From Megamerina dolium (taxonomy: Eukaryota; Arthropoda; Insecta; Diptera; Megamerinidae), in NCBI GenBank assembly GCA_963854835.1, contig OY978525.1, forward strand, positions 23,211,253-23,275,252: a stretch of 64,000 nt of DNA, given 5' to 3'. The position numbers and the translations under genes were made by a program. The notes under the pieces are model-generated. The model did not search any database, was not told the origin of the DNA, and saw nothing but the letters and a program-made list of their open reading frames with translations. Positions within the stretch are counted from its first letter, which is position 1. Every line of letters starts with the position of its first letter. Shown here in pieces: positions 8,241 to 64,000 of this stretch.

Positions 8241-9552
8241 AGTAAAGGGTTATCCATTTTGCGGTTTCAAAAGTAAATGTAAATAAAACACATATAAAAT
8301 ATTTTTTATCATGATATTTCTTTTTTATTATAAAGTTTAAACGTTGACATTATGTGTGAAATACTACATCATTTAAATGACCACCGCGCGAATTGTTGCA
8401 AGCATCGATTCTTTTGAGGTAATTTTCGACCACTTTTTGACACATATTGGGCGGTATCTCAGCCATAACGTGACGAATGTTGGTTTTTAGGTGCTCAAGA
8501 GTTAAAGGTTTATCTGCATAAACACGGTCTTTCGCGTAGCCCCACAAAAAAAAGTCAAGCGGTGTCAAATCGCATGATTTTGGTGGCCACTTGATATCGC
8601 CACAATGAGAAATTACGCGGCCAGAAAATTTCTCTTGCAATAAAGCCATATTCGCTCGAGTTGTGTGGCATGTGGCACCGTCTTGTTGAAACCACATATT
8701 CTCTAAGTCGTATTCTTCAATAGCAGGCAAAAAAAAGTCGGTTATCATATGACCATAACGCTCCGAATTGACGGTGACAGTCGTTCCATCGTCATTTTCG
8801 AAGAAGTAAGGTCCAATCACACCTCCGGACCAAATAGCGCACCAAGCAGTGATTTTTGTGGATGTAGTGGCCTCTCTTCAATTACTTGAGGATTCTCAGA
8901 ACCCCAAATACGACAATTTTGTTTGTTAACATACCCACCGAGTGAGAAATGTGCTTCGTCGCTGAAGAAAATTTTGTTCGAAAAATCGCCGTCCACCGCC
9001 TGTTGTTCAAGCACCCATTCGACATATCTACGACGTTGTGAATGGTCAGCTGGCTTCAGTTGTTGTGTGAGCTGGATTTTATATGGATGTAGGTGTAGAT
9101 CCAAATGCAAAATACGCCATAATGTGCCGTAAGACAGTCCTAATTCCTGAGAACGACGAGGAATCGACACATTCTGGTCTTCGGCAACACTTTCACTTAC
9201 AGCAGCGATATTTTCGGTGGTACGAGCGAAACGATGATGCACAGGCCTTACAATATCTGTAACCGATCCAGTCTCTTCATATTTCTTCACAATTTTGCCA
9301 ATTGCTTGCGTAATTGGACGATTATGTAAACCATAATCTCCTCTTAAAGCACGATATGTGGCTGTGGCAGAATCCCCATTTTTGTAGCAGGTTTTTACAA
9401 TTTTAATGCGTTGTGCGATAGTTAAGCGATCCATTTTCGCAAATGTCAGACTTTGAACTGAAAAAGAAAGAAATTGTTTTAATAACTCAGTTTGACAGAT
9501 GTCGAATTCTAGCCCTATACTTTTGAAACCGCGAAATGGATAACCCTTTACT
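8241..9552 (-). mobile_element. rosa-type (DD41D) mariner-like element
   Basis: A nearly complete 1.3-kb DNA transposon. Its ends are 34-bp inverted repeats, 8241-8274 and 9519-9552, differing at one base and sharing agtaaagggttatccattt at their outer ends. The only ORF lies on the minus strand between them. A TA dinucleotide lies next to the left end (8238-8239), but the right one is 8 bp away (9561-9562), so the TA target duplication is unclear. The flanks on both sides match the 3' end of the RTE-like LINE found elsewhere in this window, so the element inserted into an older LINE. Confidence 0.9.
8350..9434 (-). pseudogene. rosa-type transposase, one frameshift
   Basis: Cut-and-paste transposase of the Tc1/mariner group. 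The start is placed at 9434 (MDRLTIAQRIKIV), the first Met of the conserved N-terminal helix-turn-helix domain; the frame is open further upstream, but that part crosses the terminal repeat. The first catalytic Asp is in FFSDEAHFSLGGYVNKQNCRIWG, the second in WFQQDGATCHT and the third in PLDFFLWG. Exactly 41 residues separate the second and third, the DD41D signature that defines the rosa type. One base is missing near 8851-8857, before the W-S-G-G-V-I-G-P block. This shifts the frame and leaves a stop at 8817-8819. With that base restored the length would be about 361 residues, normal for the family. No other disablement was seen, so the copy died recently or the shift is an assembly error. 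Confidence 0.9.
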
Positions 9553-9562
9553 TCACACTTTA

Positions 9563-9690
9563 TACCCACTGTTAGCTCAATGGTGTCACTTAGAAATTCC
9601 TAACGTCAAGAGGTTCTATAGTATTTGTTTATCCCAACGATGGTTGATTCTTCTACTCGGCGTTTACCAGTATACACCGAACATTGTTTT
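9563..9690 (-). pseudogene. RTE-like LINE 3' fragment, right of rosa
   Basis: Plus-strand tgttagctcaatggtgtcac, then ttagaaattcc, tcaagaggttct and tttatcccaacgatggttga, parallels 48888-48965 of the better LINE copy base for base over more than 90 bp. This region encodes the C-terminal GISNWR block on the minus strand. It is the part of the LINE displaced to the right by the rosa insertion. Confidence 0.65.
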
Positions 9691-17640: not shown

Positions 17641-19740
17641 TCAGCGATTAGGCAACCGGAATCAAATCGAGTTTAGAATAATTAAAATTAAAAAACGTAC
17701 CACTAATTTTTGCTTAGTCGGGGTTGTACTGTTTAGTAATCCAACTAATATTATCCAATCCTGAACAGAAGAGTTCCTTCGAAAGATGTTTCATGTCACT
17801 TTGGTTAAGTGGGCACTAATTGAAAGAACAAATTTGTAGTCTTTTTGAACAAAAATTTGAATTGACTGAATCCGGGAAGATATATTAGCTTGGTTTGCTG
17901 GCAAGAGAATCCTCCTTAAATAAAAAGAAAAAGAAAAGAACTTTGTTTTATAAGGATGGGTCAACCGCAAAGTGGATAGTACATTCGTTTTCTATACAAA
18001 ATGATTCTCAGATTTCAATTTCGATCTGATGACATCTCAATAATATATTTTTAGGAAGACAAGCATTTTCCTTATATACGACAAATTTTGGAAAATCCAT
18101 TCTTCTATTCGAAAATGATTAGCTACAGTCTAGTACTGACTGACGTTCATACGTTCATTAGAAAATTATGATTCTAAGTTCGTCGATGCAATTGATGTCA
18201 AGTACTCGCAACTTCAGAAACTTAGGTACTTATTAATCCACCCTCGTAGATAGGTATAAGTATAATCAATAGTAATCAAAATAATAATCATTCAATATGA
18301 ATTGAAAGTGTACTCTGCTTATGATGATATTGCTATTGATGGTTGATAGGTAGTGATGGTGGTTGGTAAAAGTTAACCGCAAATCATTCATTTTTATAAC
18401 TTTGCATGTGTGTGTGTATTATGAATACGTATGCACATACTCATATGTATATATGTTAAAATTCTAATTATACGAAAGTAATTTTTCCTTCAATTTTTTT
18501 TTTTTTGTTTTATTGTGCGCACTCACCCTTATAACCAAAATGAAATAAGACCACAATGAAAATAGCAAAAAAAAAAAAAATTAAGCAGCTACGACAAACA
18601 TCATAAAAATATAAATAAGAGTACATACACACATACATGTGCTTCTTCCATTCTTGTAATATCAGCTACATGAGCCACAACAAGCTACCAGTAAGATCTG
18701 ACACCTAAACACCCACAACCATTGCATCAATTGCTTATAAATACAATTTTCACGCTCATAATAATTATTTGTGTGGTTGTTATTCTGATGATGGTTTGTG
18801 CTCCTCTTGCATCTTCGTAAGATTTCTCTTGTTTCTCTTTCAAATCTTTTTTGGTTTTTGTTAATTTTTTTGTTTCTTTCTTATTGACTGCATCACAATG
18901 TGAGTTGTGAAGTAAAATTCGTATGAACTCATGCGACCACATAACGTATGTATGAATATGTATTCGTATGAAAAATTATTTGTATTTGCTTGGTGTTGTA
19001 ATTCTTTTGCACTTTACTGCTTGTTGCTCATTTCACTTCACTTCATTTGAGATTTCATTTGTTGTTCTTTTACATACGAACATGTATTCATTCGTCTTGT
19101 TGTTGTTACCGTTGATGTTCAGTTGGATTTTTCGCAATCAAGCAAATGACTTTTTTGATGCAAAAGTAATAATGAACTCAGAAGAAGTGATTTCATATAA
19201 GTTAATATATACATACTATATGGTGCATATGCGTATATACATGTACCTTCTGTATGTTGAGATGTTTATAAATATATGTATACAAACAAGTAAAGTACAA
19301 TGTACGTACATGTTTTTGTATATGAACATCCTTGTATGTAAATGTATATAGACACCATATACATATATCTAAGCATAGGTACATCTATTTCTATAGTTGA
19401 TTTTCTTTCGTATGAAAAATGAAAATGAAGTGTATGTAATGTATGAAATTTCCCAAAGGATTCCAACATGTAGAGCTAAAATATACTTATACATGTATGT
19501 ATCTACGTAGTACGTAACTGCATAAGTATGAGTAAATATGGCTAGATGGTTAACATTAGTATTTATTTTAAGGATATTTTTCATGAATAAGTTACAGCAA
19601 GTGTTACTATTGTAGATATTATGTCGAATAGTAGGTATGAACATTGATATCAAGAAAAGGAAAAGAAGAACTTAATTCGATTATACAAAAATTTTGGTAT
19701 TTAAAATGATATACAATATTTATTTAATCATGTCATTATA
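17641..19740. other. AT-rich intergenic DNA
   Basis: No supported gene. A 127-codon frame at 18968-19351 opens with a signal-like hydrophobic run but continues as repetitive Tyr/Met/Ile codons from (TATG)-like DNA. It looks compositional. Confidence 0.45.
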
Positions 19741-24095: not shown

Positions 24096-24362
24096 AATTT
24101 GTGGGACTTAAAGCCCCGAAGAGATCTTTAGCGGAACTTCTCTTCCATTACTGTTGTGCGTGTTAAATTTAGGACAGTATTAGAAGGGACCTATTTATTT
24201 TAGCCATTTCCGAACGACAGAACTCTTGCAACATCACTTTTTCTGAGCTTTGTCACAGAATTATTTTTTTTAGAAGCTTTTCCATGGTAAATTGTTACTG
24301 CCGGAAAATTGCCAATTGCTTGCCGACAGATAGGCACCGGTCGAAAGAAAAATCTTTCGTCG
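24096..24362 (-). repeat. tRNA-derived SINE, (ATTT)n-tail type, head lost
   Basis: On the minus strand it runs from cgaaagatttttctttcgac, through gccggcagtaacaatttacc (plus-strand reverse complement) and aacagtaatggaagagaagtt, to the ttcggggctttaagtcccaca end. The tail is short (attattta). The tRNA head is missing. Confidence 0.75.
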
Positions 24363-24854
24363 TGCTATACCTATGCAAATATTCAGTCGCCATACCACAG
24401 TTTGTAGGTTTATTTCAAGTATTTCACTAAATTGCTATGCCTATTGCCTTCAATTAGCGCTACTAATGCGCCATCATACTCCAGCTCGACCGCGGTTTAA
24501 ACATTATGTTTTCAGGAATGCGAAAATTCATGAAAAATACTTCCTTAGCGAAAATTCCTTTTTTATAGTAATTAAATTAGAAGCTTTTTTGAATCGATGT
24601 ACAACCTCCATGTTTTCTAGTGATGCTTTTGCAAGGCAATTACCTGACTGTGTTAACCTAACCAGGCAGTGCAATCATGTTGAACTCATGGCAATTTTAC
24701 TCAACATAGCGTGCACCAGGAAGGTGGACTAAGGAAGACTAAGGTAAGTGACGAAGATATCTAAACTATTCCCAATGAAAAATTGTAAAACTGTCACTAT
24801 CACTGTTAATTCAAATAAAAATGTTTATAATCCGTTCTCAAATCATATTATAAT
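24363..24854. other. Unassigned segment downstream of peptide gene 1
   Basis: A 119-codon plus-strand frame (24373-24732) is open but has no recognisable motif and starts at the edge of the SINE. Nothing else seen. Confidence 0.35.
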
Positions 24855-24860
24855 TTTATT
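24855..24860 (-). terminator. Polyadenylation signal of peptide gene 1
   Basis: AATAAA on the minus strand (tttatt on the plus strand), 43 bases after the stop codon of the 24904-24996 gene. It predicts a very short 3' UTR. Confidence 0.6.
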
Positions 24861-24903
24861 AATTTACTTGGAAATATTTTTAATAATTCTTCCATTAATA
24901 TAA

Positions 24904-24996
24904 TCATTTCCTTCCACAGTAAAAACATCCTGGAGGTTTTGCAGCAGCAGCTACAATCACGAGAGCCAAGATGAAACAGACCTTAAGAAAACGCAT
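24904..24996 (-). CDS. Secreted 30-aa prepropeptide, CFYC-GRK (gene 1)
   Basis: A complete tiny gene of 30 codons from ATG (24996) to TGA (24904-24906). Residues 1-19 form a signal peptide: basic MR, hydrophobic core LKVCFILALVIV, and small residues A-A-A before the predicted cut. The remainder is KPPGCFYCGRK. Gly-Arg-Lys at the end matches the amidation plus dibasic-cleavage signal of insect neuropeptides and some secreted peptides, predicting KPPGCFYC-amide with a Cys5-Cys8 disulfide. The paralogue at 27296-27388 has the same length without gaps: 21 of 30 residues match, and 9 of the 11 mature positions. Eight codons differ silently, consistent with selection on the protein. A TATA box sits 83-90 bp upstream and AATAAA downstream. 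I do not recognise the family. A hormone, male accessory-gland peptide or short immune peptide are all possible. Confidence 0.75.
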   Translation of the reverse strand: MRFLKVCFILALVIVAAAAKPPGCFYCGRK

Positions 24997-25078
24997 TTTG
25001 TTTTATTGTAGTAAACTTTTACGTATAGATTGGTACTTGTTAATAAAATGTACTACTTTGAAATGGTAAATGCTCCTT

Positions 25079-25086
25079 CTTTTATA
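25079..25086 (-). promoter_or_regulatory. TATA box of peptide gene 1
   Basis: TATAAAAG on the minus strand, 83-90 bases upstream of the ATG at 24996. Transcription starting about 30 bases downstream (near 25056, in a TTTCAAAG context) would give a 5' UTR of about 60 bases. The paralogue has its TATA at almost the same distance. Confidence 0.65.
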
Positions 25087-26047
25087 GAAGAATATATTGC
25101 AGTTTAAAATACATAATGTACGTAAGTACTTGTATAAATAAAAATTATTCTGACGCAAGACTAAGTAAATATGTCGCACATCAGCAGCGAGAGTTTCGCA
25201 ACACGTAAAAATTTAGTTTTTGTGATAATCATATTTTATTTTTTTCTATATGTTAAATTTACTGATATATGTTACATATATTTGGAAACGTAAGGATATA
25301 TTCAATTATTACTAAAGTTTAAGACTGCTGGTCTTTTGACTTTTTATGAATCTTTGGTAAGCTTTTGTACTTTTTGTACGATTTGTATCTATGTTAAAAT
25401 TATATGAGCCGTTGGTTAGGTATAAAACCCATTTTAAAAATTTAATATTGTATAATTTTTGAAACTAAAAGTGCTATAAAATTTCTAAAAATACCATCAA
25501 ATATTTTTGTGAAAAAATCTACTTATACTAATTTGAAAAATAACAATTCATATAACACATGAATACATATTTGCTTATTCCAGATAACAATGAAACATTT
25601 GAGTATACAGTTTGGCTTCTAACACACACTTTCTACGTCATACGGTGATCATGTGAGTGTAACATCTTTCTCAGAGAACACTTATATAAACTCTCGAGAA
25701 AGAAGATGAAGACATATTTGTTTAAAAGTTAAATTCAAATGTCATCATAGCGGATAAGAAATAATATATAAACTTAATCCACCTTGTTATTAGTACACTG
25801 CGGGTGAAGTGTATTTATATTATAAAACTTTTAAATTACGCTCGGCATATACCACACGAAAATACGAAAATAATATTCCGACAAATTCGAGCTCCTGAGG
25901 TGAAACGAATGCAAATGGATTGCTTTATCATATTTTACTGGAACGAATGAACGACTTGCCACAATTTGCTTTAAGACAGAATATTTGAACATCAGCTCAA
26001 AAAAGTCGAGCTGCTCTCGATATAAAAATCAAGAATATCAATTTTAA
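25087..26047. other. Region upstream of peptide gene 1
   Basis: No ORF. It should hold regulatory DNA for gene 1. Another TATA-like site (cttatataaactc, near 25681, plus strand) is followed only by a 9-codon frame. I saw no obvious NF-kappaB-type GGGRNYYYCC site. Confidence 0.4.
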
Positions 26048-26417
26048 TGCCATGGTGGATCATTTCTGTAGGTCGTGGGTTCAATCGCCTGCTGAAGCAT
26101 AACAAAATTTAATATCGAAAAGATTTCGAACGGTACCCACCTGCCGGAAAGAATTGGCACTTTTTCCGGCAGTAATATTTGCCAAAAATGCTTTTTAAAA
26201 GAGCTCTGTGACAAAACTAAGTTAAAGTGATGTCACAAGGGTTCTGCCGTTCGGAACCGGCTAATACATGTAGGTCCCTTCTGATACTGTCCAAATTTAA
26301 CACACACATCAGTATTGGAAGAGAAACTCGGTGGTATAACAATGGGTCTTTCTGGCCCAAGTGTGTTCTCTCAGAGAGAGGGAGAGAGCATCCACATAAC
26401 CTAACCTAACCTAATGC
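26048..26417 (+). repeat. tRNA-derived SINE, (CCTAA)-tail type
   Basis: The head is partly deleted (tgccatggtggatcatttctgtaggtcgtgggttc; box B intact, box A damaged). The body is well preserved from aacaaaatttaatatcg to acatcagtattggaagag. The 3' end is the alternative one: tggcccaagtgtgttctctc, then agagagagggagagagcatc, then cacataacctaacctaacct. Three CCTAA repeats close it at about 26396-26414. Confidence 0.85.
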
Positions 26418-26956
26418 CATGGTGTGCCATGGTGACCAAAGAAGAATATATTCCCACAATCGCATTGTAATTCATTTTATACAAAATAACATTCGGTAAT
26501 AAAATGGCGCCGATAAATTTTATTCCAATACGACAAATGGTTGTACCAAATTTCAACATTTCATAAGGTTGCGTGACAGTGACTCAAACAAAGAGGAATG
26601 GATTTAATAATCAAGTAGGTATGATTTCAATGTGAGGTTATGAATAATACATGGAGTCATCATCACTCAGAATCACTATCTTATGGCAGACAAGATGAAG
26701 AAATCTACATATAAATTATGGAAAACATTTAAGGTTCATATAAAGAAAGCTGATCGTCAGTAAGCAAGTTTTGATCACCAGATGTGGCAAATGCGTCCGC
26801 TAATTTATTCTACTCTCTGAGTAGTCATAGCACTGAAACGAAATTTCATTCCAAATCCTGTTTTAAATTAAAATAATATGATGTATGTACCGAATATGAT
26901 TTGAAGTCGTAATATATGTGTTAAATTTTTATTAATGACTAATCTTGTCTAATCAA

Positions 26957-27062
26957 GTGTCGCAGCTCAGTAGTGCCTTCTGATCTGTAGGTCTTCGATT
27001 CAATCGCCGGCTGAAGCATAACAAATTTAATATCGAAAAGATTTATTTATTCTTATTTATTT
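26957..27062 (+). repeat. SINE head fused directly to a tail
   Basis: Box A-like gcagctcagtag and box B-like gattcaatcgcc are followed by aacaaatttaatatcgaaaag and then immediately by tttatttattcttatttattt. The whole of the roughly 200-bp body is missing. It could be an internal deletion or a short retrotransposed transcript. Confidence 0.7.
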
Positions 27063-27179
27063 TTAATCATTAATTTTAATCACATTTAAGACGCAATTGA
27101 TGTTTTGAAATTACATTTGCTTGAAATTCTGTATGTGATATACCGTATAAATCCATTAAAACTACAATATTTTGTATTT

Positions 27180-27185
27180 TTTATT
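27180..27185 (-). terminator. Polyadenylation signal of peptide gene 2
   Basis: AATAAA on the minus strand, 110 bases after the stop codon at 27296-27298. Confidence 0.5.
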
Positions 27186-27295
27186 AAATAGTTTGCAGCA
27201 AAGGTAAACAAATTAAAAATCAACAATATGTTAAAAAAAATTTATAATTTAGTGTATGTATCCAAATACTTGTGCTTCATCATCTTCGAACACCA

Positions 27296-27388
27296 TTATT
27301 TCCTTCCACAGAAAAAGCACGTCGGTGGTTTTGCATTTGCAACTGCAACCACTATAGCTAATATAAAACATATTTTAAGAATACGCAT
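27296..27388 (-). CDS. Secreted 30-aa prepropeptide, CFFC-GRK (gene 2)
   Basis: Paralogue of the 24904-24996 gene, same strand, 2.3 kb away, also 30 codons (ATG at 27388, TAA at 27296-27298). The signal peptide opens MRILKICFILAIVV and ends V-A-N-A, a good A-x-A cleavage site. The rest is KPPTCFFCGRK. After removal of Arg-Lys and amidation at Gly the product would be KPPTCFFC-amide, 8 residues with one possible disulfide. The conserved core K-P-P-x-C-F-aromatic-C-G-R-K contrasts with a freely varying signal peptide. The TATA box lies 83-91 bases upstream. The pair probably arose by tandem duplication, and two SINE copies now lie between them. Function not known; precursor size and processing marks suggest a signalling or defence peptide. 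Confidence 0.75.
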   Translation of the reverse strand: MRILKICFILAIVVAVANAKPPTCFFCGRK

Positions 27389-27470
27389 TTTAATGCAAAC
27401 GATATAAATTGTACTGGATAAGTTGCTCGATAGATTAGTTTGACTAATTTGATATTATACAAATTATTTC

Positions 27471-27479
27471 GTTTATATA
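27471..27479 (-). promoter_or_regulatory. TATA box of peptide gene 2
   Basis: TATATAAAC on the minus strand, beginning 91 bases upstream of the ATG, against 90 bases for gene 1. The sequence between TATA and ATG has diverged far more than the coding part, so the shared spacing suggests an inherited promoter layout. Confidence 0.6.
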
Positions 27480-34243: not shown

Positions 34244-34250
34244 TATAAAT
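34244..34250 (+). promoter_or_regulatory. TATA box of peptide gene 3
   Basis: TATAAAT, 62 bases upstream of the ATG at 34306. An initiator-like tgcagtc lies about 30 bases downstream (34274-34280), the spacing expected for a TATA-Inr promoter. Confidence 0.6.
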
Positions 34251-34305
34251 GAAGCAGTTTTTCACTAAAACATTGCAGTCAAATTGATATATTGAATATG
34301 TGGGA

Positions 34306-34428
34306 ATGCGTTTCATTACATTGGTTTTCGTATTGACTTTTGTATTGGCAATTTCGGATGCGCCGCCAAAGTTTAAGCGACTACGGCCATCAGTTGCGTT
34401 AATAAAGGAATATCGACTGCCACCATAA
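34306..34428 (+). CDS. Secreted 40-aa cationic peptide precursor (gene 3)
   Basis: A complete 40-codon gene from ATG at 34306 to TAA at 34426-34428. Residues 1-19 are a strong signal peptide (MR, core FITLVFVLTFVLAI, then S-D-A before the likely cut). The mature 21 residues begin PPKFKRLRP and end EYRLPP. They hold three Lys and three Arg against one Glu, about +5 net charge, with proline pairs at both ends and no cysteine. That composition resembles short proline-rich antimicrobial peptides such as drosocin, but no sequence family was recognised. The layout (TATA, initiator, 26-base 5' leader, 40 codons, AATAAA 76 bases past the stop) is that of a working intronless mini-gene. It shares the MR start, precursor layout and a PP at or near the new N-terminus with genes 1 and 2, but is not clearly homologous. 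Confidence 0.65.
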   Translation: MRFITLVFVLTFVLAISDAPPKFKRLRPSVALIKEYRLPP

Positions 34429-36247: not shown

Positions 36248-36476
36248 GTGGGTACCGTAGCTCAGTGGTTAGTGTGTTGGCCTTCTGATCTGTAGGTCGT
36301 GGTTCAATCCCCGGCTGATGCATAACAAATTTAATATCGGAAAGATTTTTCTTTCGAACGGCACCCACCTGTCGGCAACCAATTGGCAATTCTACCGACA
36401 GTAACAACTTGCCATGAAAAACGCTTTCAAAATAACTTTGTGACAAAGCTCACAAAAAGTGATATCACAAGGGTTA
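36248..36476 (+). repeat. SINE 5' part with intact tRNA-like head
   Basis: The best-preserved head in the window: box A tagctcagtgg at 36258-36268 and box B ggttcaatcc at 36301-36310, in a context similar to tRNA-Lys. The body continues to gtgatatcacaagggtt and then breaks off. Confidence 0.8.
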
Positions 36477-36499
36477 TACCTACTCATATTACAGATGTT

Positions 36500-36712
36500 T
36501 TGCGTCATAACTTTTCTTAAGCTTTATCACAGAGTTCTATTTAGAAGCGTTTTCATGGAAAATTGTTACAGCCGGAAGAATTGCCAATTGCTTTCCGACA
36601 TGGTCTACAGGGGGCTCGAAAGAAAAATTTTTTTGATATTAATGTTTCGCTTCAGCCAAGAATTGAATGCATGATTAACTGTTGAGCTATATCACGATTG
36701 GCGTTATCCGTA
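36500..36712 (-). repeat. SINE 5' part in inverted orientation
   Basis: Minus strand: a diverged head (gagctcaacagtt after correction for strand; reads ttgagctatatcac on the plus strand near 36683-36696) followed by the body up to gctttatcacagag. It faces the 36248-36476 copy, so the two make an imperfect palindrome. Confidence 0.7.
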
Positions 36713-37263: not shown

Positions 37264-37818
37264 TTAAGGGGGTCCAAAGTGACCCCTTAAAAATGAAATA
37301 CCGAAATTGTGGTCAAGATTCCGCTCGAACCAGTTATCTAAAACGCAAAAAGTAAAAAAAAATCTTATTTCTGTTTATATCGTTGAGGTACTGATGTAGG
37401 ATTTTTACGAAATTTTAAAAATTGAAGAAATGGCAGTTGTTTTTATAAAAATTATTCGTTTTCATGCTTTTTTTCGATATAAAAACTGCTGTAAAATTGA
37501 AAAAAAAAAATTTCAAAAAACCGCTACGTGGGTACCTTCAGTTATCTGTATTAATGAGTCTGTCAAAGTTTCAAGTCAATCGGTTAAGTAGATTTTTTTT
37601 TAATCCTGCCCACAAAATTCAAAAATATGGTTTCGAGAAAAACGCTTTCAAATTTTGGAAACACAACAAAACTTTGTATTATAGACTCACATTTAATCTG
37701 CAATACCAGAACCATAAACTTCCCCTTCCTCATCCTGTAGAAGCTCTCGTTAAAGATGCGAAAAATGTAAAAAAAAAAATAGATTTTACGAAAATTTTAC
37801 ACAGGTGGACCCCCTTAA
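37264..37818. mobile_element. MITE with TTAA ends (555 bp)
   Basis: It begins ttaagggggtcca (37264) and ends with the reverse complement tggacccccttaa (37818), 13 bases perfect, then diverging. TTAA at both outer ends fits the TTAA target duplication of piggyBac-type transposons. The interior is AT-rich; the 136-codon frame inside (37464-37874) runs out past the right end and is not a transposase. A relative with the same outer ttaagggggtc is at 58413-59141. Confidence 0.7.
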
Positions 37819-52725: not shown

Positions 52726-52751
52726 ATATCGTACAAAGTGCCTGAACTTTT

Positions 52752-55370
52752 TATACCCTGCATAATGCAATATGCAAGGTATATTCATTTCGGTCAGATG
52801 TTTGTGTCCACTTGAAGGAATCTCCGGAGATATAGACATAGATATATATTCGTGATCAGCGTCGCTTAAATTTTCGATTTAACGATGTCCGTCCGTCCGT
52901 CCGTCCGTCCGTCCGTCTGTCTGTCACCTGGCTGGTTCGCACGATAACTTGAGTAAATATTGAGCTATTTCGATAAAATTTGGAATAAGTAATCTATGAT
53001 CCAAGGGTACGGAGGGGATTGATATTGGGCATGATCGGTCAATAACCACGCTCACACCAAGCATTCAAAGCGACTAACCTCGAAATTTTCAAAATCTTTA
53101 ACTTTAATATACCACTTGGGACAACAATATTTAGCACATAGACTTATATTATACTACTATATAACCTCGCCAAAAGTGGTTGAGCCACGCCTACTTTTTA
53201 GCGTAGCTCTCATACAAAGTGTCTGTACTTCTTTTAAATAGAAACAGCTATAACTTCTACAATCTTCTGTCCAGAATAACCATAATTGACACTTAGATTA
53301 ATATGGTAGTCGGAAATAATATGGCAGAAAATCAGTGTGCCACGCCCACTCCTTTTTGGGTCTCCCATACAAAGTTGCGGAAATTAAAAAAATTTTCCCG
53401 GTTATAACTTGCAAACTATTCAGCGTAGAATAACGAGATTTAAGGTGTGGATTAGTATTGTACGAGCAACTAGGCTCACAGAAAATGGGTGCACCACGCC
53501 CAGTTTTTATCGTAGCCCCCATACAAATTTTAAATTGAAACAGCTGTAACTTCGGCAATCTTCTGTCTAGAATAACCATAATTGACACTTAAATTAATAT
53601 CGTAGTCGGCAAAAATCTGGCAGAAAATCAGTGTGCCACGCCCACTCCTTCATGAGACTCCCATACAAAGTCAAGGGAATTAAACTAAAACTTTTAAGCT
53701 CCATAACTTACAAACCATTTAGCGTAGGACAACGAGATTTAAGGTATAGATTAGCATTGTACGAGCAACTAGGCTCACAGAAAATGGGCGCACCACGCCC
53801 ACTGTTTATCGTAGCCCCCATACAAATTTTACATTGAAACAGCTGTAACTTCGGCAATCTTCTGTCTAGAATAACTATAATTGACACTTAAATTAATATC
53901 GTAGTCGGCAAAAATCTGGCAGAAAATCAGTGTGCCACGCATACTCCTTCATGAGTCTCCCATACAAAGTCAAGGGAATTAAACTAAAATTTTAAGTCCC
54001 ATAACTTATACCTGAAATTCTTTTAAATTTAAACAGCTGTAACTTCGGCAATCTCCTGCCTAAAATAACCATAATTGACACTTAGATTAATATCGTAGTC
54101 GGAAATAATATGGCAGAAAATCAGTGTGCCACGCCTACTCCTTCATAGGTCTCCCATACAAAGTCGAGGGAATTAAACTAAAACTTTTAAGCTCCATAAC
54201 TTACAAACCATTTAGCATAGGACAACGAGATTTAAGGTGTGGATAAGTATTGTACGAGCAACTAGGCTCATAGGAAATGGGCGCGCCATGCCCACTGTTC
54301 ATTGCAGCCCCCATGCAAAATGACTGAAATTCTTTTAAATTTAAACAGCTGTAACTTCGGCAATCTTGTGTCTAGAATAACCATAATTGACACTTAAATT
54401 CACAGAAAATGGGTGCACCACGCCAATTGTTTATCGTAGCCCCCATACAAATTTTAAATTGAAACAGCTGTAACTTCGGCAATCTTCTGTCTAGAATAAC
54501 CATAATTGACACTTCAATTAATATCGTAGTCGGCAAAAATCTGGCAGAAAATCAGTGTGCCACGCACACTCCTTCATGAGTCTCCCATACAAAGTCAAGG
54601 GAATTAAACTAAAACTTTTAAGCTCCATAACTTACAAACCATTTAGCGTAGGACAACCAAATTTAAGGTGTGGATTGATATTGAAAAATTAATTAGATAT
54701 ACCGGAAAGATATACGTCACGCCCACTTTTTATATAGCTTCCGTACAAAGTCTCGGATTTATCTTAAACATTAAAACACCCATAACTTACTAATTAATAC
54801 GCCTAGGTCAACCCATTGCAACCTATGTAGTTTAGTATTATAGGCAGAAATTGATCCTCCAAAATTGGTGAGGTACGCCTGCTTCTTAATGTAGGTCCTA
54901 TACAAAGTAGTGGAAGAAAAGGATGGATATACGAGTAAACTTTTTATATATACCTCTACATATGCAGGGTATAATTTGGTCGGCCCCAACCGACTGTAAG
55001 GAGAGTTTTTTTAAAATAAACCGCAGCAGCTTAGACAAACTTCTGTCTTAGAGAACCGTATTTGACACTTAGATTAATATTATAGTCGGAAATCAGCTAG
55101 GCACGACCTCCTTATATAGGGACACCCATCCAAAGTTGCAAAAAAAAAAACTTAAACACCTATAACTTACACAAATACTTCACCTAGGTCAAATATATTT
55201 CTGATGTATATTAGCATTATAGGCAAAAATTATTCATCTTAATATAGCTGCTATACCAAGTAGTGGAAATACAAGAAAAAGATGGATAAGCGAGCAAACT
55301 TTTTATATATACATCTACATATGCAGGGTATAAATTGGTCGGCCCCAGCTGACTGTAAGGTAATTTTGCT
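52752..55370 (+). repeat. (GTCY)n repeat element with ~300-bp tandem units
   Basis: A non-coding interspersed element. It starts tataccctgcataatgcaat and carries (GTCC)7(GTCT)2 at 52887-52922. It then holds a tandem series of units marked by ataattgacactta-attaata, beginning near 53281, 53577, 53876, 54070, 54382, 54501 and 55057. The spacings are 296, 299, 194, 312, 119 and 556, so full units are about 300 bp and others are deleted. Recurrent blocks are ccacgcccact, tctcccatacaaagt and gaaacagctgtaacttcggc. Two 3' ends occur, at about 54950-55000 and 55299-55370, each reading catatgcagggtataa then ggtcggcccca. The (GTCY)n tract recalls dipteran mini-me/DINE-1 repeats. ORFs in it are chance frames. 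Confidence 0.8.
52887..52922 (+). repeat. (GTCC)7(GTCT)2 microsatellite
   Basis: Nine tetranucleotide units inside the 52752-55370 repeat. The matching tract in the second copy (63200-63271) has 16 GTCC plus 2 GTCT units, in nearly identical flanks. Confidence 0.9.
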
Positions 55371-60955: not shown

Positions 60956-62254
60956 TAATAAAACATAAGTATTGTCTTGAACATAAATAACACATTTACC
61001 TAACAGATATTTTCGTAATCTGTATTTAAACTGCATGGGACTAGGATTGTCATGAAGTCCAGCTCTTGCTCGCATTGCAGCAAAACAATTTACTAACAAC
61101 TAATACATCTTGGTTTAATCTATATGTGAGAATATAGTTGAAACCGTAGTTCTCGTTCAGATAAAAATAAAATTCCTTTAGGGAATTATTGCCCAATAAT
61201 ATTCCTTTTTGGAACGGTAGTAAAGATTGCATTTTGAATTTAGTTGTTTGAGCCTCTAATACAAATTATTTTGTAAGCAATATGTTTTTTCACATTTTTT
61301 ATTGAAAATAATGGATTTTGAATTTGATTTTTTCAGCCTTATCAAAACAAAAGCACGTGTATCAAACATACATAAGTTCATTTTCGAAATAATTTTTAAT
61401 TGATGTTCCAAATCCATGCCAAAGTGTTTTTTTGAGGAAATCGACTGGAATGATGTAAATTTTGTATTGAATACATCAAATCAATCATTAACTATGTCAA
61501 TGAAATTGACCGTTTCGCACGCGCTGTACATTGCTAACCCTAACGAATAGCAACGTCGTATCGCGCTCGCAGGGCTATGTGAAATCATTGGTGCTGCAAG
61601 TTTCACTTTCTGACGACCTGCATGATGTACCGTCAGATGGTTCTCACTAAGTTTGTGCACTGTCGATGCATCTGGAACAGACGTGTACGTCAACAACTGC
61701 GCACTTGTGCGCGTTGTCAATAACTTTTCTTGAAATAGATGGCCACTGTCAAGAAAGTGATTCCGTAAAAGCTTCAACAAATGCGGAACATCTGCAAACA
61801 TGAAAACTTTGCCATCTATTGCTAGATTTGGAAACCATCTCCGTTCTAACATAAAGAAGAAAGTACAAAAAATTACCTTACAGTCAGCCTGGACCGAATG
61901 AATTATACCCTGCACATAGATACATATATAAAAAGTTGCAAGCGGTTACTCATGCAGGGTATAAAAATCAATAGGTAACACTCACATACCGTTTGACACA
62001 TTTAATTCTTTCCAAAGGGCTTGATTGTCACCATCCATATCGGACACGATTCCCACGACAGGATAACATGCCACTTGAGCCACCGTAATTGCTATATCCA
62101 AAATAGCATTGGACATAGCAACATCGTACGCATAAAATATTGGCTGCTTCCACGAAGACTTTAAACCACGGGCAAAAACCATTTGGAAGTTTTTGCACGG
62201 CGTTCGGACGGTGTCTGACACAGGATCGTATTCATACATTGGTTCGACTTTCAT
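60956..62254 (-). pseudogene. P-element-like (THAP9-type) transposase relic
   Basis: Minus strand, in family order. The 62254-61982 part (EYDPVSDTVRTPCKNFQMVFARGL, WKQPIFYAYD, VVGIVSDMDGDNQALWKELNVSN) contains the Ser-Asp-Met block with a likely RNase H-fold catalytic Asp. It ends at a splice-donor-like GTATGTGAGT. After about 130 bp coding resumes: WFPNLAIDGKVFMFADVPHLLKLLRNHFLDSG, characteristic of P transposases, then RQKVKLAAPMISHSPASAIRRC and FIDIVND. A TGA at 61481-61483 breaks the frame, which then continues FDVFN. Further on are QSLLPFQKGIL, YGFNYILTYRLNQDVL (61232-61120) and, in a shifted frame, LHDNPSPMQFKYRLRKYLLGK (about 61060-61000). The N-terminal THAP DNA-binding domain was not found. 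It is not functional as it stands. Confidence 0.85.
61900..61968. repeat. Short (GTCY)-repeat end inserted in P-like intron
   Basis: Inside the gap between the two P-like coding blocks, the minus strand reads tataccctgcatgagtaacc ... gtgcagggtataattcattc, then ggtccaggctgactgtaagg. These are both ends of the repeat at 52752-55370 with almost all of its interior missing. Confidence 0.65.
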
Positions 62255-63063
62255 CTTACACTTAAAGAAAAGTCAATAGCTTCAGTTGTACATATAACTC
62301 CTCACACTTTTATAAAAGCAGCAGTATTTGTCTGTAAAATAAGAACGTAATTTGGTTTAAATTTTTTTAATCAGTTATAGAAATTGTTCATACTTACATT
62401 GTCAATAGTTTTAAAGTAATATTTCAGCAATGTTTATAACTTCTCACACCTTTGTAAAAGTAAAAGTAACGTCAATGAAATAAGAAATTAATTTGGATTA
62501 AATGTGTTTAATCAATTACCTAATTTTTTAATACTTACATTGAGTTTTAAATTGAAGAAATCTAATTTGAATATAAATTCTGAACGAAAAGCATAAAAGT
62601 AACGATGAAAAAACGACTGTAATGCACACACATATTTTTTCATTAAAGTAAATTGTAAACTATAGTTTATAAATTTTCTTCGAAAATGAAAAAGTATGTT
62701 TGGAAAGAAGCATTTCTGATTTGCTTGGGGAGTCAGAGTTGTCAAATTAGAAAGGGATAGAATCCTACTGTTAACGTTTATATATATTTTATTAAAACGC
62801 GTTAACATAAAAATTTGAATTTTTATTTTCGAGAAAATTTTATAATTGAATTGAAACATGAAAATTTTCAATATATAAAAATAAGATCATATTGATCTTG
62901 AATAAAAATATTTAACAAGTACAACTACAAGTTTATTGAATATCATAATAATAAAAACAATAATAATAATAACAATAATACCATAATAGTAATAATATAA
63001 CACTACAACTACTCTCCTCCTCCAAATTAATTCATTGTAAGTAAATTAAATGTAACTTTATTT
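62255..63063. other. AT-rich DNA with (AATAAT)n
   Basis: No exon for the missing N-terminus of the P-like transposase was found. A (AAT)n-like tract spans about 62945-63000. Confidence 0.4.
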
Positions 63064-63064
63064 T

Positions 63065-64000
63065 TATACCCTGCATAATGCAATATGCATGGTATATTCA
63101 TTTCGGTCAGATGTTTGTGTCCACTTGAAGGAATCTCCGGAGATATAGACATAGATATATATTCGTGATCAGCGTCGATTAAATTTTCGATTTAACGATG
63201 TCCGTCCGTCCGTCCGTCCGTCCGTCCGTCCGTCCGTCCGTCCGTCCGTCCGTCCGTCCGTCCGTCTGTCTGTCACCTGGCTGGTTCGCACGATAACTTG
63301 AGTAAATATTTAGCTATTTCGATGAAATTTGGCATAAGTAATCTATGATCCAAGGGTACGGAGGGGATTGATATTGGGCATGATCGGTCAATAACCACGC
63401 CCACACCAAGCATTCAAAGCGACTAACCTCGAAATTTTCAAAATCTTTAACTTGCTATAACTCACATAATATACCACTTGGGACAACAATATTTTGCACA
63501 TAGACTTATATTATACTACTATATAACCTCGCCAAAAGTGGTTGAGCCACGCCTACTTTTTAGCGTAGCTCTCATACAAAGTGTCTGTACTTCTTGTAAA
63601 TTGAAACAGCTGTAACTTCTACAATCTTCTGTCCAGAATAACCATTTTTGACACTGAGATTAACATGGTAGTCGGAAATAATATGGCAGAAAATCAGTGT
63701 GCCACGCCCACTCCTTTTTGGGTCTCCCATACAAAGTTGCGGAAATTAAAAAAAATGTTACCGGTTATAACTTACAAAATATTTAGCGTAGGACAACGAG
63801 ATTTGAGGTATGGATTAGTGTTGTACGAGCAACTAGGCTCACAAAAAATGGGCGCACCACGCCCACTGTTTATCGTAGCCCCCATACAAATTTTAAATTG
63901 AAACAGCTGTAACTTCGGCAATCTTCTGTCTAAAATAACCATAATTGACACTTAAATTAATATCGTAGTCGGCAAAAATCTGGCAGAAAATCAGTGTGCC
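63065..64000 (+). repeat. (GTCY)n repeat element, second copy, cut by window end
   Basis: It starts tataccctgcataatgcaat like the copy at 52752 and follows it closely, with (GTCC)16(GTCT)2 at 63200-63271. Unit markers lie at 63643 and 63940 (297 bp apart). It retains a ctataactcacata block near 63453-63467 that the first copy lacks. The near identity of the two copies, 10 kb apart in the same orientation, suggests recent spread or duplication. It continues beyond the window. Confidence 0.8.

What the first reader, a model, noticed from the sequence alone, without database searches (positions are those of the whole stretch)
24904..27388. Two paralogous 30-residue secreted peptide genes with CxxC and amidation signal
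Seen: two 30-codon frames on the minus strand, gapless, 21/30 identical. Each has a signal peptide and a mature K-P-P-x-C-F-[Y/F]-C-G-R-K, a TATA box about 90 bp upstream, and an AATAAA downstream. Eight codons differ only silently, while the mature core changes at 2 of 11 positions. Known: Gly followed by two basic residues is the classical signal for C-terminal amidation. Inferred: an 8-residue amidated peptide with a CFYC/CFFC ring. Such genes fall below normal annotation cut-offs, and I know of no named family with this core.
Basis: partly seen in the sequence, partly recalled or inferred. Interest (0 to 1): 0.88.

Follow-up and report, generated by a model that had tools for sequence, protein, structure and literature searches.

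The report
Twin genes for tiny secreted peptides
Two neighbouring genes, probably from an insect, each appear to encode a 30-residue precursor of a tiny ring-shaped secreted peptide; they look like real genes, but their function is only inferred and no relative could be searched for in other insects.

Summary
Two gapless 30-codon frames (24904-24996 and 27296-27388, minus strand) share 21 of 30 residues and 70 of 93 bases. They look like real, old paralogues: changes lean to silent sites (NG86 dN 0.18, dS 0.93), and 8 of 20,000 neutral simulations kept the frame with as few residue changes. Outside the frames the clearest conserved stretch is the TATA-to-start block, -110 to -58 (score reached by 17 of 10,000 GC-matched draws); the leader is not conserved. 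Best reading: signal peptide + KPPxCF[Y/F]C-Gly-Arg-Lys, trimmed to an amidated, disulfide-ringed octapeptide, probably an extracellular effector. Processing is inferred from motifs; function is a guess. The plan resembles fly Bomanins, but their 16-residue motif cannot fit. Pfam, NCBIfam and PDB gave no convincing match. New lead: a third TATA-driven secreted-peptide frame at 34306-34428 (+), its signal sequence perhaps related. Decisive searches of insect genomes, this one included, could not be run: the genome search did not complete 11 times and two tools reject 30-residue queries. The species, hence 'tephritid', is unverified.

The parts
24904..24996 (-). Gene A coding frame, MRFLKVCFILALVIVAAAA|KPPGCFYCGRK, stop included
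27296..27388 (-). Gene B coding frame, MRILKICFILAIVVAVANA|KPPTCFFCGRK, stop included
25081..25086 (-). Gene A TATA box (TATAAA), -90 from ATG
   Evidence: conserved block
27472..27479 (-). Gene B TATA box (TATATAAA), -91 from ATG
   Evidence: conserved block
25056..25061 (-). Gene A presumed start-site element (TCAAAG), -65; weak match to the recalled fly Inr consensus
   Evidence: conserved block
27447..27452 (-). Gene B presumed start-site element (TCAAAT), -64; weak match to the recalled fly Inr consensus
   Evidence: conserved block
24855..24860 (-). Gene A AATAAA
27180..27185 (-). Gene B first AATAAA
34306..34428 (+). Possible third member C: secreted-peptide-like frame MRFITLVFVLTFVLAISDA|PPKFKRLRPSVALIKEYRLPP; TATA at 34244-34249, CAGTCA at 34276-34281; different, cationic mature part without Cys
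   Evidence: relation to A and B only suggestive

Best explanation
Genes A and B are old neighbouring paralogues on one strand, each a minimal TATA-driven gene whose coding part is one short exon. Each makes a 30-residue prepropeptide. Steps: (1) the N-terminal 19 residues act as a signal peptide, cut after Ala19 (A-x-A site); (2) a carboxypeptidase removes Lys and Arg and the amidating enzymes turn Gly into a C-terminal amide; (3) the two Cys close a small C-x-x-C disulfide ring, giving KPPGCFYC-amide and KPPTCFFC-amide. Pro-Pro at the front and the amidated ring at the back would protect the peptide from exopeptidases, and Lys plus the free amino end make it cationic next to an aromatic ring. 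Most likely it is an abundant, inducible or gland-specific extracellular effector (immune or reproductive secretion), similar in plan to the short amidated CxxC Bomanin peptides, rather than a widely conserved neurohormone. The paired frames, their silent-site bias and the promoter similarity are shown; steps 1-3 follow from motifs and recalled enzymology; the role is inferred.
For: Paralogy with coding constraint: 8 silent against 9 replacement codons in 30, NG86 dN 0.178 and dS 0.928. Neutral simulation: frame kept with at most 9 residue changes in 8 of 20,000 runs; mature part with at most 2 changes in 484 of 20,000. Position-anchored TATA-to-start block conserved (17 of 10,000 GC-matched draws reach the score), leader not (1,414 of 10,000). 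No ATG in either leader. Signal-peptide-like N-terminus with a -3/-1 small-residue site in both. Signal-like frames with TATA plus a loosely defined start element: 4 of 9 in the window, against a mean of 0.25 and maximum of 1 over 40 Markov sequences. Short fly immune peptides with a CXXC bend and, in a number of them, C-terminal amidation exist (PMC4411088, passages).
Against: No transcript, peptide or orthologue evidence could be obtained. No NF-kappaB-type site stands out: in 1.5 kb upstream the three strict patterns match neither gene, and a loose one matches twice before B (1.3 expected) and never before A; in 600 bases, six consensus strings with one mismatch allowed match once before A and never before B or C. 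This weakens the immune version. The TCAAA start element is not the canonical fly one (recalled). The first flank test, unanchored local alignment, showed no promoter similarity (at least as good in 91 of 200 and 162 of 200 shuffles); the anchored tests that succeeded had limits set after the TATA box had been seen. A 30-residue precursor is extremely short for ER entry.
Confidence: 0.5

Rival explanations
1. Neurohormone or paracrine signal: the amidated ring peptide activates a G-protein-coupled receptor, and A and B are isoforms.
For: Gly followed by two basic residues at the end is the classical amidation signal (recalled); in the mature part CF[Y/F]CGRK varies only Tyr to Phe.
Against: Most insect neuropeptide precursors are longer and conserved across orders (recalled); no convincing Pfam match; no paper held holds the core strings searched.
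Confidence: 0.2
2. Uncut membrane micropeptide: the hydrophobic stretch stays in a membrane and the Cys pair is lipidated or binds a partner.
For: Total length is in the range of known membrane micropeptides such as sarcolamban (recalled); the hydrophobic stretch also carries a conserved Cys7.
Against: The hydrophobic stretch is about 14 residues, short for a membrane span, and ends in an A-x-A cleavage-like site in both; most changes inside it are hydrophobic swaps, as expected of a signal peptide.
Confidence: 0.12
3. Decaying or non-functional duplicates that happen to keep a short frame.
For: Short frames survive fairly easily: 1,730 of 20,000 neutral runs kept the frame intact.
Against: Silent bias, conserved mature core and a separately conserved core promoter.
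Confidence: 0.06

Closest known systems
Short-form Bomanins (Drosophila immune peptides)
   Same: Small secreted peptides, mostly clustered genes, CXXC bend, C-terminal amidation of a number of members (PMC4411088, passages)
   Different: Short-form Bomanin mature peptides are 16-17 residues and correspond to a 16-residue motif; here 8 residues with CxxC at the very end. Bomanins are reported only from Drosophila (PMC4411088) or Drosophila and close relatives (PMC6857651; passages of both). Toll induction is unknown here.
Daisho peptides
   Same: A pair of related adjacent genes for small secreted peptides; mature Daisho1 is amidated (PMC6989431, passages)
   Different: No CxxC in Daisho; heavier (1,722 and 2,694 m/z); found only in the Drosophila genus; divergently transcribed, whereas A and B lie on the same strand
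Ibin and Mibin
   Same: Short fly peptides with a signal sequence and a small mature part (PMC12882233, abstract and passages)
   Different: Neither the KNHEEWXG nor the C-terminal proline-rich motif is present in A or B, nor the full motif in C (by eye)
Amidated neuropeptides
   Same: C-terminal Gly-Arg-Lys processing signal (kind recalled)
   Different: Precursor of only 30 residues, no convincing match to a Pfam family

Membership tests
Bomanins | 16-residue Bomanin motif around CXXC | tested here: not met
   Predicted mature peptide is 8 residues (11 before trimming), so the motif cannot fit; definition, peptide
Bomanins | CXXC bend | tested here: met
   CFYC and CFFC
Bomanins | Secreted, C-terminal amidation | tested here: inconclusive
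   Sequence signals present; processing not observed
Bomanins | Induced by Toll signalling | not testable with these tools
   No expression data; no NF-kappaB-like site stands out upstream
Ibin / Mibin | KNHEEWXG (Ibin) or RPXTLPPN/QRPXXPN/DF (Mibin) motif | tested here: not met
   Motifs compared by eye with A, B and C
Amidated regulatory peptides | Signal peptide and Gly followed by basic residues at the end of the peptide | tested here: met
   Sequence signals only: both frames end Gly-Arg-Lys-stop; signal-like N-terminus by simple rules, no SignalP available
Amidated regulatory peptides | Cognate receptor | not testable with these tools
   none

The most novel reading that the evidence does not exclude
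A new insect secreted-peptide family with 30-codon precursors, among the smallest secretory precursors I can recall (no call tested this), whose members keep a related signal sequence while the mature part diversifies from an amidated CxxC ring (A, B) to a cationic proline-containing peptide (C).
Probability: 0.3. Interest if true: 0.72.

Novelty: new member of a known kind. Interest (0 to 1): 0.5.

Why it matters
Genes of 30 codons fall below usual annotation limits (recalled), so whole classes of insect peptides may be missed. If translated and secreted, these precursors would also test how ER entry works for chains that leave the ribosome before a signal sequence can be recognised. An amidated eight-residue ring peptide is easy to synthesise and assay.

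Tried and rejected
Chance similarity was rejected. Transposon copies were rejected as the source of the pair: the wider flanks do not align clearly, and the repeats around them are a different interspersed family. CYTL1 (B only, E 0.082) and AgrD (B only, E 0.028) were rejected as signal-sequence composition matches below the curated cut-offs. Searches that gave nothing: PDB at E up to 10, Rfam at gathering score, the back-translated pattern in viral and prokaryote contigs (neither an insect collection), the window's 141-codon frame at 37449 (14 candidates, none at E 0.001 or better), frame C in the protein database, and paper searches for the core strings. The 14 papers all matched only the string CNVHG, and by their titles and abstract starts are human cancer papers. 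A Pfam scan of 120 frames of the window (from 150 chosen out of 507 stop-to-stop frames of 45 residues or more) matched 6 families: four transposon-type and two weak nuclease models.

Full report
Observation. The two frames are present exactly as described. Codon by codon, 8 sense codons differ silently and 9 change the residue; 70 of 93 bases agree. The 22 differences in the 90 sense bases fall 6, 5 and 11 on codon positions 1, 2 and 3. Within the window, tblastn gives E = 2.8e-13 for the pair and nothing else convincing (best others 0.65 and 0.47; the listing was cut at 60 rows). A six-frame pattern scan finds C..CG[KR] three times; the third match has no Met between the preceding stop and the motif.

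Are they genes? NG86 gives dN 0.178 and dS 0.928 for the whole frame, 0.214 and 0.824 for the signal part, 0.124 and 1.207 for the mature part; with 30 codons these are rough, and a second method in the same script (YN00) failed. In a neutral simulation started from A with 23 differences, 1,730 of 20,000 runs kept the frame, 108 had at most 9 residue changes, 8 had both, and 484 had at most 2 changes in the mature part.

Promoter. Unanchored local alignment of the flanks found nothing beyond shuffles (upstream 150: 91 of 200 shuffles at least as good; upstream 400: 162 of 200; downstream 300: 29 of 200). Anchored at the ATG, the 110 upstream bases align with score 7, reached by 1 of 2,000 genomic draws and by 18 of 10,000 GC-matched draws. 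Split up, the block -110 to -58 (TATA to presumed start) is reached by 17 of 10,000 and the leader -57 to -1 by 1,414 of 10,000. Further out, -220 to -111 is reached by 489 of 5,000 and -330 to -221 by 1,019 of 5,000; the first 60 bases after the stop by 130 of 10,000 and the next 60 by 2,085 of 5,000. The limits were chosen after the TATA boxes were seen. The repeat finder extends the frame similarity to 128 bases at 70% (24872-24999 with 27264-27391), which agrees with weak similarity just after the stop. The picture is a conserved core promoter and a conserved frame separated by a diverged leader, as I would expect for a transcribed gene.

Architecture. By simple rules both proteins have Arg at position 2, a strongly hydrophobic core and small residues at -3 and -1 of Ala19; no SignalP-type predictor was available. 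Of 9 signal-like frames found in the window (Markov mean 4.6, maximum 9), 4 also have TATA plus a start element, against a mean of 0.25 and a maximum of 1 in 40 Markov sequences. Caveats: the rule was framed after A and B had been seen, its start element is loose (it accepts ATCA or TTCA), and A and B are not independent. A stricter rule before it kept 5 frames, of which only A and B had TATA plus start element. The other two passing frames are C (34306-34428) and a weak one at 19119-19196.

Frame C. It has TATA at -62 and CAGTCA at -30, and would give a cationic peptide PPKFKRLRPSVALIKEYRLPP without Cys. Its first 63 bases match A at 36 and B at 38 of 63 places (A with B: 47). No genomic draw of 1,000 reached either score, but signal sequences resemble each other anyway. 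Against a random signal-peptide model set up from memory, the DNA alignment scores were reached by 20 (A) and 4 (B) of 3,000 draws under one setting and by 10 and 2 under a looser one; ungapped identity by 7 and 7, and by 7 and 0; the protein scores by 113 and 20, and by 65 and 16. Its upstream 95 bases do not match A or B (409 and 391 of 1,000 draws as good). Kinship of C is therefore suggestive only. No homologue of C was found in the protein database.

Function. An amidation signal, a CxxC ring and a signal peptide point to an extracellular peptide. I favour an effector made in quantity (immune or reproductive secretion), because the genes are tiny, TATA-driven and duplicated next to each other, and because short amidated CXXC peptides are known as immune effectors in Drosophila (passages of PMC4411088). 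Against this, no NF-kappaB-like site stands out: strict patterns match neither gene in 1.5 kb, a loose one matches twice before B (1.3 expected) and not before A, and one-mismatch matches in 600 bases occur once before A and never before B or C. Short secretory proteins such as preprocecropin A can enter the ER after translation with help of Sec62 and Sec63 (passages of PMC3793985), so 30 residues is extreme but not excluded.

Known families. Bomanin membership fails on the 16-residue motif. [quoted passage not shown] Ibin and Mibin motifs are absent (PMC12882233, passages). Daisho has no CxxC (PMC6989431, passages). Of the paper searches made on this question, no listed paper describes this peptide by its title or the start of its abstract. 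The lists showed 20 of 172, 20 of 30 and 15 of 79 papers, and only open-licence full texts are held, so this is not proof of absence from print.

Limits. No insect genome, transcript or peptide collection could be consulted. The window's own genome was asked for 11 times without answer. Transposase matches (best 120 of 305 listed) carry names from butterflies, beetles, a bee, a planthopper and the horn fly, but also a spider and a rotifer, so they point to an insect only loosely.

Noticed in passing
34306-34428 (+): Third signal-peptide-like frame with TATA and a CAGTCA start element; cationic, proline-containing mature part, reminiscent of proline-rich antimicrobial peptides (recalled); signal sequence possibly related to A and B.
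   Followed up: partly
24131-24400, 26124-26325, and copies near 2656, 6854, 7981, 12588, 19817, 29185, 33942, 36191, 36340, 36491, 60078: An interspersed repeat family (SINE-like in look; not classified by any search) lies beside and between the two genes.
   Followed up: partly
8350-9599 (-): Transposase-like sequence split over two overlapping frames (mariner-like by recall); the upstream frame matches Pfam DUF4817 (E 7.7e-15), and its closest database protein is 93% identical over 75%. A Mos1-type HTH match belongs to a frame that the call does not name.
   Followed up: partly
61481-61945 (-): Transposase remnant with a TNP-like GTP-binding insertion domain match (E 6e-10; P-element-like by recall). 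A TNP-like RNase H match belongs to a frame that the call does not name.
   Followed up: no
52748-54749 and 63061-64000: Long repeated arrays, pieces 73-96% identical in the rows listed (40 rows shown), shared between two places.
   Followed up: no
36303-36667: Long imperfect inverted repeat (72% over 384 alignment columns), which overlaps copies of the interspersed repeat in both orientations.
   Followed up: no
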